Part shown: positions 1 to 5,918 of the stretch, in pieces
Layout of the letters: every line of letters begins with the position of its first letter
Numbering within the stretch: position 1 is the stretch's first letter
Assembly: GCA_022800315.1 (NCBI GenBank)
Contig: JAAWQC010000006.1
Span: forward strand, 23,257-87,256
Length of the DNA: 64,000 nt
Reading direction: 5' to 3'
From: Clostridiales bacterium
GTDB lineage: Bacteria > Bacillota > Clostridia > Oscillospirales > Acutalibacteraceae
Program-made: the position numbers and the translations under genes
Notes under the pieces: model-generated
The model's database searches: none
What the model was told of the DNA's origin: nothing
Seen by the model: the letters and a program-made list of their open reading frames with translations, nothing else

Positions 1-475
1 TGTTTTGATATAGGTTGCTCATATCTTCGGAAAAGCTTACCTCGGTAAACAGCGGCTTGGTGGTCTCACTCGCAGCAAGCGGTTCGTTATAATAGTAATA
101 GCCATCCTTTTCAGTCCAGTTTTCTCTGTCGATATTCAGCCCGATCAGACCGAGATCGGCTTCTCCGACAGTTCCCTCCGCGAGAGCCAGTCCCTTCTCC
201 AACTGGATGCGGATATAGGCGGTTTTGTCGCCGGTGTTTTTCACCCCGACAATTTTGGATACCTTTCCACCTGGCATCACGCCGATCACGTCCTCAAAAG
301 GAACGGGATCGGCGCCGTCCTCCGGAACGGCTGTTTCCTGCAACTCGATCCGGACATTTCCGGTTGTGATAACATTGATAGCCGTATCCTCCGCCGTAAA
401 ATAAGCAATCGTTCCATAAGCAGCCAATGACAAACAGCTCACTGTCAAAGCCACAGCCACCAGTTTTCGTTTCAT
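1..475 (-). CDS. SipW-dependent-type secreted protein (TasA/camelysin-like), partial
   Basis: This is the third secreted-protein gene after sipW, and its 3' end lies beyond the left edge, so only about 158 residues are visible. It starts at ATG 475 behind a GAGGAAAAA ribosome site. The first 30 residues are a basic, hydrophobic signal peptide ending in the SipW-type pattern GTIAYFTAED, followed by the family landmark ITTGNVRIEL. Later parts resemble the two upstream paralogues, including a tyrosine-rich DGYYYYNEPL stretch like DYYYYSKVL in the next gene. Known family members (Bacillus TasA, camelysin CalY) are exported, cut by SipW, and assemble into cell-surface fibres or act as surface proteins. 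Fibre formation here is inferred only from family and context. Confidence 0.8.
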   Translation of the reverse strand, partial: MKRKLVAVALTVSCLSLAAYGTIAYFTAEDTAINVITTGNVRIELQETAVPEDGADPVPFEDVIGVMPGGKVSKIVGVKNTGDKTAYIRIQLEKGLALAEGTVGEADLGLIGLNIDRENWTEKDGYYYYNEPLAASETTKPLFTEVSFSEDMSNLYQN

Positions 476-635: not shown

Positions 636-1211
636 TTATCCAATGCAGGTGGCGAACCAAGCAGCGATTTCCTCAACGGTCATTGTCTGTACTTCAGCCC
701 ATTTGGTTCTGGCGCCCTGAGCTTGGACAGCCTCAGCTTTTACAACGATGTCATAAATGCCGTCAAAACCGTTGGTGACGTCGGTGGAGAGAACGACCTG
801 GTCGAACAAAGCGTCGGTGGTGTTACTTCCTTCTTCCGTGCCGAGAACCTTGCTGTAGTAGTAATAATCACCGTGTTTTACCCAGTTTTCACCCAGCTTA
901 CCATCTACATAATCAGTACGATAAGACAGGGCCACATTTTCCGGCCACTCCACTTTTATGCGGACAAATGCCGGGTTCTTGCCGGTATTCTCAACGGTGG
1001 GATCCTTAGCGACTGCCTCGCCCGGATACAGATCTTCGACTTCTTCTGCATCCCACTTCGGCTCGGTCAGAGTAATGTCAACATTGCCGATAGTGAGGGT
1101 GTTGTGCTTCTCATCCTTGTCGGTGAAATAGGCCAGAGAGGAGCCGACAACGGCGACGGCGACCAGAGAAGCGGCCAGTGCGATGGAGAGAATTTTTTTC
1201 TTTGCGTTCAT
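636..1211 (-). CDS. SipW-dependent-type secreted protein (TasA/camelysin-like)
   Basis: A 191-residue exported protein. I chose ATG 1211 because GAAAGGAAG lies just upstream; in-frame upstream codons lack a ribosome site. Residues 1-30 form a signal peptide (MNAKKKILS, hydrophobic core, SSLAYFTDKDEKHNT), matching the SipW-type AYFTD consensus. LTIGNVDITL follows directly, the conserved N-terminal strand of TasA/CalY-like proteins. The rest is predicted as a beta-rich extracellular domain with ENTGKNPAFVRIKVEW. It follows a paralogue by 96 bp and precedes another, all on one strand behind sipW. Function as matrix-fibre subunit is inferred from family; the sequence itself shows only export by SipW. 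Confidence 0.85.
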   Translation of the reverse strand: MNAKKKILSIALAASLVAVAVVGSSLAYFTDKDEKHNTLTIGNVDITLTEPKWDAEEVEDLYPGEAVAKDPTVENTGKNPAFVRIKVEWPENVALSYRTDYVDGKLGENWVKHGDYYYYSKVLGTEEGSNTTDALFDQVVLSTDVTNGFDGIYDIVVKAEAVQAQGARTKWAEVQTMTVEEIAAWFATCIG

Positions 1212-1307: not shown

Positions 1308-1856
1308 CTATGCGGCCGAAACTGTTTTCCAAGCCTCAGCGGGACTGAAATCCGCTTCGCTGCTCTTGTGCTGCTGTACCGCATAGACGGTGAAGGTCAG
1401 GGTCGGGAACGTATCCGATTTCAAATCGTCCATCATGGCCTTGTCAACAGTATCATTGACAGTTACGCTGTTGTCTTTCAGAACAGCAAACGTCTGATCA
1501 GCCGCACTGTTTGTCACCTGACGGTAGAAAACACCGGATTCGCTCTCTAAGGGCGTCCAGCCATTCGCCATGTCATAGGTCATAAAGGTATCAAAGTTTT
1601 CAGATTTCTCAACTTTGACGAACAGCCAGCAGTCCTCGCTGTCCTTAGTAACAGTTACTGTCGGATCCTTTGCAATGGTACAGCCGGGAATCATCTTATA
1701 ATTTTCAGTGGTTTCTTTTAATTTGATATCTACATTTCCCACCGTAAAGGTATTGACAACAGAATCTGTTTTATCGGTCAGCCAGGCCAGTGTCACGCAG
1801 TTCACAAAGCAAAGAACCAACGCCGCCGCAACAGAAGCTATGACTTCCTTTTTCAT
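1308..1856 (-). CDS. SipW-dependent-type secreted protein (TasA/camelysin-like)
   Basis: A 182-residue exported protein, the first substrate gene after sipW (84 bp downstream). ATG 1856 has a strong GGAGAAAGGAGGAG site. The signal peptide ends TLAWLTDKTDSVVNTF, with W in place of the usual Y, and is followed by TVGNVDIKLKET, the family landmark. The mid-region IAKDPTVTVTKDSEDCWLFVKVEKSENF resembles the repeated beta-strand pattern of the other two paralogues. Three diverged paralogues in one operon suggest a major subunit plus accessory or anchoring subunits, as in tapA-sipW-tasA of Bacillus. Which is which cannot be told from sequence. Confidence 0.85.
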   Translation of the reverse strand: MKKEVIASVAAALVLCFVNCVTLAWLTDKTDSVVNTFTVGNVDIKLKETTENYKMIPGCTIAKDPTVTVTKDSEDCWLFVKVEKSENFDTFMTYDMANGWTPLESESGVFYRQVTNSAADQTFAVLKDNSVTVNDTVDKAMMDDLKSDTFPTLTFTVYAVQQHKSSEADFSPAEAWKTVSAA

Positions 1857-2539: not shown

Positions 2540-2561
2540 GACATAAGGTTGATTATGTCGC
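2540..2561 (+). repeat. Left 22-bp inverted repeat / recombination site (IRL)
   Basis: These 22 bases are the exact reverse complement of 2770-2791. Within them GACATAA and TTATGTC form a 7-bp dyad around a 6-bp asymmetric centre, GGTTGA. A 6-bp core between two recombinase-binding arms is the layout of XerCD/dif-type sites. The site lies 71 bp upstream of the sipW start. Confidence 0.9.
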
Positions 2562-2635
2562 CGGCAATAATGAAGACTTGGACAGTAGGCGGACTGTCAA
2601 TCTTCTAAAAAGTCACTGGAATATCAGCGGCGGCT

Positions 2636-2705
2636 AAAAAGGGCGCAAAAGAACAGCCGGAGGAAAATCATGGATGATCCCGGCTTGTTTTTTCGCGCCC
2701 TTTTT
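2636..2705. terminator. Bidirectional hairpin terminator inside the invertible segment
   Basis: AAAAAGGGCGC (2636-2646) pairs with GCGCCC plus TTTTT (2695-2705). An inner stem forms between AACAGCCGG and CCGGCTTGTT with one bulge. The flanking A and T runs make it work on both strands. In the present orientation it shields sipW from read-through of the recombinase gene. Confidence 0.8.
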
Positions 2706-2725
2706 AAACTTTTCAACGATATGTA

Positions 2726-2754
2726 TTGCAAAATCAGCTAGAATATGATATATT
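2726..2754 (+). promoter_or_regulatory. Outward promoter of the invertible segment
   Basis: -35 TTGCAA (2726-2731), 17-bp spacer, -10 TATATT (2749-2754). The predicted start is near 2761, just before the right repeat. As it stands it would transcribe antisense into the 3' end of the recombinase gene. After inversion it would read into sipW. Confidence 0.75.
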
Positions 2755-2769
2755 ATTTTAAATCGGATA

Positions 2770-2791
2770 GCGACATAATCAACCTTATGTC
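2770..2791 (-). repeat. Right 22-bp inverted repeat / recombination site (IRR)
   Basis: Exact reverse complement of 2540-2561, with the same 7-6-7 dyad. It overlaps the last codons of the recombinase gene: the TAA stop (2785-2787) lies inside the repeat. Because the repeat is unchanged by inversion, the coding end is preserved in both orientations. Confidence 0.9.
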
Positions 2792-3606
2792 ATCAGCAGC
2801 TTTTCGACCCGTTCCAAACGGTGCCTGTGTTCGTTGCCGGTTTCCATTGTATAAATTCGGGTGGTATTCACGCTGCTGTGGCCGAGCAAATCGGCCAGAC
2901 GAACGATGTCCTTATCCACGCTGTAAAATGTTCTGGCAAAGAGATGCCGCAGATTGTGTGGAAACACCTTGTTCGGAGATATGCCCGCCCGTTCGCAGAG
3001 AAATTTCATGTCCCGCCAGATATTCCGGCGGTTCAGCGGCTTTCCGTTTCTTGTTACAAAGACTGTTCCGGCTGTAATGCCGGATTTTTTCATATATGGC
3101 TGCAACATCTTTTGAATTGACGTGGGGATGAAGATCACCCTCGTCTTATTTTTGCAGTTCACCACCGCTTTGCCTGCTCGTACTGCTTCCGCCGTAATAT
3201 ATTGCAGCTCGCTTACTCGAATACCGGTGCCGCAGATCGTCTGGATCACCAGCGATATCCGGGTGTTTCCGGCTGCTTTCACCAGCCGTTGGTATTCTGC
3301 CTTTGTCAGTTCCTTGTCCTCTCGGCTGAAAATCTGCCGCTGAATTTTAAGAGACTTCACGCAGCAGTCCTGCAATCCGATAAAACGCAGGAAACAGTTG
3401 AGAGCGATCAGCATAGAATTGACGCTGGACGGGGCATACCGTGCCCTCAGGTACTCTTTATATGCAATAGTTTTCTCTTTGCTGATTGGTCTGTCCGCCA
3501 GAAAAGCATAAAAGCAGCGAATATCCCGCCGGTATTTTTCAATGGTCGCCGCACTTTTTTCTTCTGTAATCAAATACTGTTCAAATTTTGAAATCTGTTC
3601 GTCCAT
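2785..3606 (-). CDS. Tyrosine recombinase (putative DNA invertase)
   Basis: A 273-residue XerC/D-type recombinase. ATG 3606 has GGAGGAAAG upstream. The N-terminal SAM-like core-binding domain covers about 1-85 and the catalytic domain about 95-265. All active-site residues are visible: Arg130 (GTGIRVSEL), a beta-hairpin Lys near 154 (CKNKTRVI), His217 and Arg220 (PHNLRHLF), His243 (LLGHSS) and nucleophile Tyr252 (RIYTM). It lacks the extra DNA-binding domain and neighbours (excisionase, relaxase) of phage or ICE integrases. Its 3' end runs into the right inverted repeat of the adjacent switch, which makes a dedicated invertase the best reading. Small tyrosine recombinases of this kind drive promoter inversion in clostridia and Bacteroidetes. 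Confidence 0.88.
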   Translation of the reverse strand: MDEQISKFEQYLITEEKSAATIEKYRRDIRCFYAFLADRPISKEKTIAYKEYLRARYAPSSVNSMLIALNCFLRFIGLQDCCVKSLKIQRQIFSREDKELTKAEYQRLVKAAGNTRISLVIQTICGTGIRVSELQYITAEAVRAGKAVVNCKNKTRVIFIPTSIQKMLQPYMKKSGITAGTVFVTRNGKPLNRRNIWRDMKFLCERAGISPNKVFPHNLRHLFARTFYSVDKDIVRLADLLGHSSVNTTRIYTMETGNEHRHRLERVEKLLMT

Positions 3607-4745: not shown

Positions 4746-4836
4746 TGGCGGAGAAGGAGGGACTCGAACCCTCGCGCCAGTTGCCCGGCCTACGCCCTTA
4801 GCAGGGGCGCCTCGTCACCAACTTGAGTACTTCTCC
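4746..4836 (-). tRNA. tRNA-Ser (anticodon GCT)
   Basis: 91 nt including an encoded CCA. The acceptor GGAGAAG pairs with CTTCTCC. The anticodon loop CTGCTAA gives GCT. A long class II variable arm (GTAGGCCGGGCAACTGGCGC) and T-arm GGTTCGAGTCC are present. It reads AGC/AGU codons. Confidence 0.97.
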
Positions 4837-5831: not shown

Positions 5832-5918
5832 TGGCGGAGAGGAAGGGATTCGAACCCTTGGCTCTGACGAGTCACTGGTTTTCAAGACCAGCTCCTTAAA
5901 CCGCTCGGACACCTCTCC
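5832..5918 (-). tRNA. tRNA-Ser (anticodon TGA)
   Basis: 87 nt with encoded CCA. The acceptor GGAGAGG pairs with CCTCTCC, the anticodon loop TCTTGAAAA centres on TGA, and there is a long variable arm and T-arm GGTTCGAATCC. Confidence 0.97.

What the first reader, a model, noticed from the sequence alone, without database searches (positions are those of the whole stretch)
2540..2791. Perfect 22-bp inverted repeats beside a tyrosine recombinase: an invertible DNA switch
2540-2561 and 2770-2791 are exact reverse complements bounding 208 bp between a tyrosine recombinase and the sipW operon. Each repeat is a dyad (GACATAA, 6 bp, TTATGTC) with an asymmetric centre, the layout of a tyrosine-recombinase crossover site, and the two are in inverted orientation. 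Recombination would therefore flip the segment. I know of invertible promoters in gut Firmicutes and Bacteroidetes, but not of one described for a sipW/TasA-type operon.
Basis: partly seen in the sequence, partly recalled or inferred. Interest (0 to 1): 0.95.

Follow-up and report, generated by a model that had tools for sequence, protein, structure and literature searches.

The report
Flip-switch controlling a bacterial biofilm-fibre operon
A gut bacterium carries a 208-letter stretch of DNA between two perfect mirror-image repeats beside a recombinase gene, and in three pairs of related bacteria, one of them including this bacterium, the matching stretch lies in opposite directions; flipping it would likely turn on a surface-fibre (biofilm matrix) operon, a predicted on/off switch not yet tested in this species.

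Summary
The invertible-switch reading is well supported. Most sampled relatives of the adjacent tyrosine recombinase carry, just 3' of the gene, two inverted 18-bp sites ACATAA-N6-TTATGT with a locus-specific centre: 44 of 56 loci against 0 of 561 control windows, and 25 of 26 further loci. In three locus pairs the segment lies in opposite orientations, bounded at the sites: window/UBA1390, L084/L086, L125/L134. Contigs tend to break there. As assembled, the window's best-placed promoter points away from sipW (predicted OFF); flipping would put it 109 nt upstream of sipW. SipW/TasA-type genes lie behind at least 6 of 38 such switches. The kind is known: fimS-like invertible promoters, and Clostridia 'inverton group 139' (PMC11892184), probably this family. 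An inversion-controlled sipW-TasA operon was not found in my paper searches. Flipping in the window's own species, and its effect on transcription, are not shown.

The parts
2540..2561 (.). left inverted repeat; crossover core ACATAA-GGTTGA-TTATGT at 2541-2558
   Evidence: 22/22 with 2770-2791; for the core
2770..2791 (.). right inverted repeat; core ACATAA-TCAACC-TTATGT; contains the recombinase stop codon (2785-2787, minus strand)
2562..2769 (.). predicted invertible segment, 208 nt; as assembled in the predicted OFF orientation
   Evidence: orientation opposite to that in UBA1390 (L005)
2726..2754 (+). promoter-like site TTGCAA-17-TATATT with TG before the -10; points at the recombinase 3' end as assembled, would point at sipW after inversion
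   Evidence: 13.9 versus 5.2 for the opposite end; pooled shuffled 99% level 13.4; in-silico flip: 109 nt from the -10 to the sipW ATG; in the unrestricted scan the two directions score 13.9 and 12.4
2635..2706 (.). long hairpin with T runs on both strands, a predicted bidirectional terminator between recombinase and sipW
   Evidence: I7; -39.0 and -38.8 kcal/mol, z -5.4 and -5.6
2785..3606 (-). tyrosine recombinase, 273 aa, Xer-like; predicted to flip the segment
1941..2468 (-). sipW-type signal peptidase (175 aa), first gene of the operon predicted to be switched
1308..1856 (-). TasA/BsaA-like protein (182 aa; no profile hit itself, 40% over 82 aa to the next gene)
636..1211 (-). BsaA/camelysin-like SipW-dependent protein (191 aa)
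1..475 (-). third BsaA-like protein (188 aa; runs off the window). The contig goes on with a 753-aa VWA protein, a 194-aa BsaA-like protein and a 230-aa protein with a PPQTG anchor-like end
2755..2782 (-). weaker promoter-like site (TTGATT-16-TAAAAT) overlapping the right repeat; points at sipW as assembled but lies upstream of the hairpin

Best explanation
This is very likely a site-specific invertible promoter switch: two exact inverted copies of a predicted tyrosine-recombinase crossover site flank a 208-bp segment that holds a promoter-like site and a hairpin, and the recombinase encoded next to it is predicted to flip that segment and so switch the downstream sipW-TasA/BsaA-type fibre operon on and off. 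Shown: the sites, the recombinase family and its recurring site layout, and opposite orientations of the segment in related loci. Inferred: that this recombinase acts on these sites, in this species, by exchange within the 6-bp centre. As assembled the promoter points away from sipW and into the 3' end of the recombinase gene (predicted OFF), while the hairpin would stop read-through from the recombinase side. After inversion the promoter would lie 109 nt upstream of the sipW start with the hairpin behind it (predicted ON). Because the recombinase stop codon lies within the repeat itself, either orientation leaves the recombinase reading frame intact.
For: Perfect 22-bp inverted pair, the only exact sites of this pattern in the assembly. 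A motif-free inverted-repeat scan of relatives puts a pair just 3' of the recombinase in most loci whose contig goes on. With a fixed rule, 44 of 56 loci with >400 nt after the stop have a matched pair (6 of 6 at >=65% identity, 32 of 36 at 55-65%), against 0 of 561 control windows; 25 of 26 further loci do too (after removing one record that one search showed to be a repeat of the first set). The centre agrees between different loci in only 30 of 1892 comparisons. L084 and L086 have collinear flanks (82% and 96% DNA identity) while the stretch from core to core (278 nt) aligns end to end in reverse. The window and UBA1390 (L005, recombinase 84% aa) have oppositely oriented segments, and L005's promoter points at its operon. 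L125/L134, same genus, are inverted over 197 of 233 nt. 33 of 44 segments hold a promoter above the pooled 95% shuffled level near one end; 21 of the 33 with a called direction have the -10 46-49 nt from the core. Contigs start within 250 nt of the recombinase 3' end in 14 of 87 cases, but of the 5' end in 1 of 81 (one-sided p 4.8e-4; eight distance limits were tried, p 0.035 to 1.7e-4); 6 of 26 contig-end loci end 0-5 nt past a core. Published reads show orientation changes in Clostridia inverton group 139, linked to a tyrosine recombinase group, with IRs and spacers of matching size (PMC11892184: passages and section 8).
Against: No reads or second assembly of the window's own species show the other orientation; the one near-identical record (L004/G106) has the same orientation. 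Same orientation is the commoner finding: in the first set 5 of 7 locus pairs whose segments align over more than half their length, and 13 of 15 such pairs (60% or more of the query) involving the second set, the repeat record left out. Promoter direction is unresolved in 11 of 44 segments; the window's -10 is 18 nt from the core, not the common 46-49; and in an unrestricted scan that includes the repeats, the window's two directions score 13.9 and 12.4, that is unresolved (26 OFF, 9 ON, 9 unresolved). The other candidate is a minus-strand site that already points at sipW as assembled; only the hairpin would keep it silent. Promoter-like sites in the wider region are no more frequent than in shuffles (3 against 3.8). 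12 of 56 relatives have no pair by the rule, 6 of them among the 8 below 50% identity. None of the 28 best sipW relatives fetched from the family has the site within about 1.5 kb, so this is not a general feature of sipW operons. Of the 26 contig-end loci, 10 end 29-253 nt past a core and 9 show no core.
Confidence: 0.87

Rival explanations
1. A static regulatory palindrome: the two repeats are operator sites for a dimeric regulator or parts of RNA hairpins, and the neighbouring recombinase is incidental.
For: Each repeat is a dyad that can fold as a small hairpin (-7.2 kcal/mol); many regulators bind dyads (general knowledge).
Against: The sites go with the recombinase gene across families, sit at its 3' end, and a pair by the same rule is absent from 561 control windows. 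The centre is the same in the two sites of a locus but varies between loci, which fits a crossover region better than an operator. Segments lie in opposite orientations in three locus pairs.
Confidence: 0.05
2. Attachment sites of a mobile element: the recombinase is an integrase that moves the recombinase-plus-repeat module, and the repeats are att remnants.
For: The module stands in front of very different operons. The two other genomes of the genus have no close relative of the recombinase (best E 3.9e-10 in G001, none in G002), and a syntenic sipW operon in another genus lacks the site (L181), so the module seems to have moved over evolutionary time. Some loci carry direct as well as inverted copies, which would allow deletion.
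Against: The window's two sites are inverted, so recombination between them would invert, not excise; in the window only a promoter-like site and a hairpin lie between them. The 20-nt repeat has no exact match in viral contigs.
Confidence: 0.05
3. A decayed switch: the element once inverted but is now locked OFF in this species.
For: Only one orientation is seen in the window and in L004, and the contig is not broken here.
Against: The repeats are perfect over 22 nt, the recombinase is full length with the conserved R, K, HxxR, H and Y blocks visible in the alignment to solved Xer proteins (motif names recalled), and a promoter-like site is present.
Confidence: 0.12

Closest known systems
Clostridia inverton group 139 with tyrosine-recombinase invertase group 35 (PMC11892184)
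   Same: Class Clostridia (32 of 33 invertons); tyrosine-type recombinase/integrase within 5 kb of nearly all; in the two examples whose coordinates are given, IRs of about 13 and 25 nt about 228 and 206 nt apart; orientation changes measured in reads.
   Different: Its IR motif is in a supplement I could not open, so identity of the families is inferred. SipW, TasA and LPXTG do not occur in the main text.
E. coli fimS with FimB/FimE
   Same: A short invertible element (314 bp) carrying the promoter of a surface-fibre operon, flipped by tyrosine integrases (encoded beside it: recalled); element orientation also affects the fimE message through a terminator (PMC9993118 passages).
   Different: fimS has 9-bp repeats and two recombinases; IHF is essential and Lrp helps set the bias. 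Here the repeats are 22 bp, one recombinase is adjacent, and its stop codon lies inside the repeat.
Clostridioides difficile invertible sites (Cdi1-7, RecV)
   Same: Clostridia; short inverted repeats upstream of surface or motility genes; recombinase RecV (PMC5903667 passages; PMC7446863 abstract).
   Different: RecV is described as a master recombinase for several sites, and apart from Cdi2/Cdi5 the repeats are unrelated to each other. Here each recombinase sits by its own site pair with family-wide arms.
Clostridium perfringens sipW-bsaA operon
   Same: A SipW plus BsaA fibre operon with ON and OFF cells in one population (PMC7395162 passages).
   Different: There bimodality depends on a two-component system and PilA2; 'recombinase', 'inversion' and 'phase variation' have 0 occurrences.

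Membership tests
tyrosine recombinase (Phage_integrase, Xer-like) | Phage_integrase catalytic domain plus SAM-like N-terminal domain above Pfam cut-offs; catalytic R...K...HxxR...H...Y | tested here: met
   (92.2 and 33.8 bits versus 27.1 and 22.3); residues seen in the alignment, their names recalled
XerA/XerC/XerD equivalogs (NCBIfam) | score above the curated cut-off | tested here: not met
   154.5 of 220, 113.9 of 335.15, 117.4 of 329.6
invertible promoter (inverton) | inverted repeats flanking a segment with a promoter upstream of a gene | tested here: met
   (promoter by prediction only; unresolved in the unrestricted scan)
invertible promoter (inverton) | both orientations occur in the same species or population | tested here: inconclusive
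   opposite orientations only between related loci of different species; contig breaks suggest mixtures in relatives
invertible promoter (inverton) | orientation controls transcription | not testable with these tools
   needs RNA data
Clostridia inverton group 139 / invertase group 35 | shared IR motif | not tested
   motif is in a supplement that could not be opened; no named group-139 genome was searched
sipW-TasA/BsaA operon | SipW-type signal peptidase plus SipW-dependent TasA/BsaA/camelysin proteins | tested here: met
   above the cut-offs of TIGR02228, TIGR04088 and PF12389, below those of the Bacillus SipW and TasA equivalogs and of TIGR04090

The most novel reading that the evidence does not exclude
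The switch silences its own motor. In the OFF orientation the segment's promoter fires across the repeat into the recombinase gene as antisense RNA, throttling the recombinase, so OFF locks itself and ON erases itself. A whole clostridial family of private-key switches (shared ACATAA/TTATGT arms, one 6-bp key per locus) uses this design, here to gate an entire TasA/BsaA-type fibre operon.
Probability: 0.3. Interest if true: 0.78.

Novelty: new variant of a known kind. Interest (0 to 1): 0.66.

Why it matters
Phase-variable biofilm fibres in uncultured gut Clostridia would explain mixed matrix-producing and non-producing cells without a signalling circuit, and would make matrix state readable from ordinary metagenome reads. 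The family's site grammar (shared arms, private centre, position at the recombinase 3' end) would let such switches and their target operons be found from sequence alone, and would offer many mutually independent recombinase-site pairs. The promoter-into-recombinase layout makes a self-locking feedback directly testable.

Tried and rejected
Looked for the opposite orientation in the window's own species: only one near-identical record turned up (L004 = G106:C83, 99.98% over 11,143 nt, same orientation). The 20-nt repeat has no exact match in viral contigs. Scanning 60 related genomes with the window's own 22-mer (3 mismatches) found only the window's genome, since the centre differs between loci; the search had to go through the recombinase. 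Considered that sipW operons in general might carry the switch: 0 of the 28 best-scoring sipW relatives fetched do. Inverted-repeat scans of four of those regions gave no perfect long pair of the window's kind. A conserved terminator was not claimed: terminator-like hairpins occur on both strands in 31 of 44 segments, but no shuffled control was run. In L005 the hairpin is split by an insertion and does not fold better than shuffles. A second protein search aimed at naming a group-139 genus gave no such name.

Corrected on checking: the second set of loci (26 of 27) contained one record already in the first set (L189 = L014), so it counts as 25 of 26; an earlier thought that L189 and L014 were two genera sharing a segment was wrong and is withdrawn. 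L116 is also a copy (of L010) but had too little sequence to be counted. Confidence was lowered by 0.01 for the unresolved promoter direction.

Rows dropped before counts: short loci L027-L056 (replaced by longer ones or copies of L004, L015, L022), the archaeal hit L026, identical copies (window counted once with L004, L107 with L025), matches under 40% identity or ending before query residue 240. In one search 168 rows of the tables were typed in; one 5'-truncated row (G157:C3, E 5.1e-82) was left out and one row just above 1e-80 (G178:C47) kept. In one search 59 of the 60 listed proteins were used (the one left out started inside the right site). L186 and L187 were fetched and not used.

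Full report
The observation. The two arms 2540-2561 and 2770-2791 are exact reverse complements over 22 nt, 208 nt apart. About 5.5e-6 such pairs are expected in a 64-kb sequence of this composition. In the 2.45-Mb assembly the exact pattern ACATAANNNNNNTTATGT occurs at these two places only. The left core is 2541-2558, with centre GGTTGA.

The neighbourhood. On the minus strand lie a 273-aa tyrosine recombinase (2785-3606), then the repeat-bounded segment, then sipW (1941-2468), a TasA/BsaA-like gene (1308-1856), a BsaA/camelysin-like gene (636-1211) and a third (1-475, running off the window). The contig continues with a 753-aa VWA protein, a 194-aa BsaA-like protein and a 230-aa protein with a PPQTG end. 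The recombinase stop codon lies inside the right repeat; the same overlap is seen at the innermost matched site of 7 of 44 loci. Since recombination between the repeats regenerates them, the recombinase frame is kept in both orientations (inference from the sequence).

Inside the segment. Restricted to promoters pointing at a nearby segment end, the best is TTGCAA-17-TATATT at 2726-2754 on the plus strand, score 13.9 against 5.2 for the other direction; the 99% level of pooled shuffled segments is 13.4. It points at the recombinase, away from sipW. An unrestricted scan that includes the repeats gives 13.9 and 12.4 for the two directions, which does not settle it: the second is a minus-strand site (2782-2755) that overlaps the right repeat and points at sipW, but lies upstream of the hairpin. 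Promoter-like sites in the wider region are no more frequent than in shuffles (3 against 3.8). The region 2635-2706 folds into a hairpin of about -39 kcal/mol on either strand (z -5.4 and -5.6) with T runs, a predicted bidirectional terminator. A script that flips the segment puts the -10 109 nt from the sipW ATG and the hairpin upstream of the promoter.

The family. Relatives of the recombinase were taken from public genome contigs and from whole genomes of the same family and order. A scan for inverted repeats without any motif showed a pair just downstream of the gene in most loci whose contig goes on. With a fixed rule (two cores within 2 mismatches of ACATAA-N6-TTATGT, reverse-complementary centres, more than 100 nt apart, within 1 kb of the match end), 44 of 56 distinct loci with more than 400 nt after the stop have a pair, against 0 of 561 windows elsewhere in the same loci. 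By identity: 6 of 6 at 65% or more, 32 of 36 at 55-65%, 4 of 6 at 50-55%, 2 of 8 at 40-50%. Further loci give 26 of 27, or 25 of 26 without a record that repeats one of the first set. The centre matches between different loci in 30 of 1892 comparisons; within a locus it matches by the rule, and all 18 positions match in 38 of 44. This is the pattern expected of a tyrosine-recombinase site: binding arms shared by the family and a strand-exchange region that must be the same in the two partners (general knowledge of the enzyme class). In eight of nine genomes where I noted two or more such sites at different recombinases (G075, G114, G116, G121, G124, G132, G185, G286, G385) the centres differ; in G121 two loci share CTTTAA.

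Evidence of inversion. First, orientation. L084 and L086, from two genera, have collinear flanks (82% on the recombinase side, 96% on the operon side); the 278 nt from core to core align end to end in reverse, and the forward matches stop about 20 nt inside each core. The window segment and that of UBA1390 (L005, recombinase 84% identical) align in reverse in two pieces, 77% and 93%; L005's promoter points toward its operon, which has a PPQTG-anchored protein and a weakly BsaA-like one. L125 and L134, of one genus, align in reverse over 197 of 233 nt; their recombinase sides are collinear, while their downstream sides do not align. Against this, same orientation is commoner: 5 of 7 such pairs in the first set and 13 of 15 involving the second set (the two reversed ones are L125/L134 and L117/L084). 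Second, promoter direction: 27 toward the recombinase, 6 toward the operon, 11 unresolved. Third, assemblies. Contigs begin within 250 nt of the recombinase 3' end in 14 of 87 minus-strand matches, and within 250 nt of the 5' end in 1 of 81 plus-strand matches (one-sided Fisher p 4.8e-4; eight limits tried, p 0.035 to 1.7e-4). Of 26 contig-end loci looked at, 6 end 0-5 nt past a core, 1 ends 14 nt past, 10 end 29-253 nt past, and 9 show no core in the last 420 nt. In G330, G346 and G286 the same centre occurs on a second contig, in G330 6 nt from its start. A mixed population would make an assembly fork there; repeats elsewhere could also break contigs, so this is supporting, not conclusive. 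The window's own contig is not broken, and the one near-identical record has the same orientation.

What it switches. SipW-type signal peptidases or TasA/BsaA/camelysin-like proteins stand behind the switch in the window, L005, L079, L011, L020 and L023, at least 6 of the 38 loci with genes downstream; the L005 and L023 hits are below curated cut-offs. Others have collagen-like or pilin-like surface proteins, SPFH proteins or GGDEF proteins. Among the 28 best sipW relatives fetched from the family none has the site within about 1.5 kb. One of them, L181, has the same seven genes in the same order without the switch. So the switch looks like a module placed in front of a pre-existing operon (inference).

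How it likely works. The recombinase would pair the two sites and exchange strands within the six-base centre, flipping the segment. OFF: promoter toward the recombinase, hairpin between recombinase and sipW. ON: promoter toward sipW. Because the OFF promoter faces the recombinase 3' end (a terminator between them was not tested for systematically), OFF cells would make antisense RNA to the recombinase. That would bias the population toward OFF and fits the 27:6 count, but it is untested, and the count may only reflect which state dominated the sequenced samples.

Comparison with what is known. It works like fimS of E. coli (PMC9993118, passages). In Clostridia, RecV switches of C. difficile (PMC5903667, passages) and inverton group 139 (PMC11892184, passages and section 8) are the nearest. 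Group 139 has 33 invertons, 32 from Clostridia, nearly all with a tyrosine recombinase of invertase group 35 nearby; two examples changed orientation over culture passages. I think it is the same family, but the motif is in a supplement I could not open. The C. perfringens sipW-bsaA operon is bimodal through a two-component system and PilA2 (PMC7395162, passages). Searches of the open-licence library for an inversion-controlled sipW or TasA operon found none (broader ones 34, 48, 52); (sipW + invertible + recombinase) returned zero papers. Subscription papers are mostly outside that library.

Verdict. The kind is known. The target operon, the stop codon inside the site and the family-wide site grammar make it a new variant.

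Noticed in passing
L004 (CATJNB010000083.1) and G106:C83: A 14,042-bp contig in a MAG filed in another genus of the family is 99.98% identical to the window region over the 11,143 nt held; probably a misbinned contig, or a very recent transfer.
   Followed up: partly
L005:9034-9393: The invertible segment of UBA1390 carries a RelB/DinJ-type antitoxin ORF in an insertion that splits the hairpin; I saw no toxin ORF beside it in the segment but ran no profile search for one.
   Followed up: partly
L077, L079, L018, L020, L023, L098, L178: Some switches carry a third copy of the site, or two direct copies, beside the inverted pair, so deletions or inversions of different length are possible.
   Followed up: no
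L076 and L102 (genome G121): Two switch loci in one genome share the same six-base centre and 90% identical segments, so these two could cross-react.
   Followed up: no
window 4746-4836 and 5832-5918: Two tRNA-Ser genes (gct, tga) flank a diaminopimelate-dehydrogenase-like gene (name recalled, not searched) just upstream of the recombinase.
   Followed up: no
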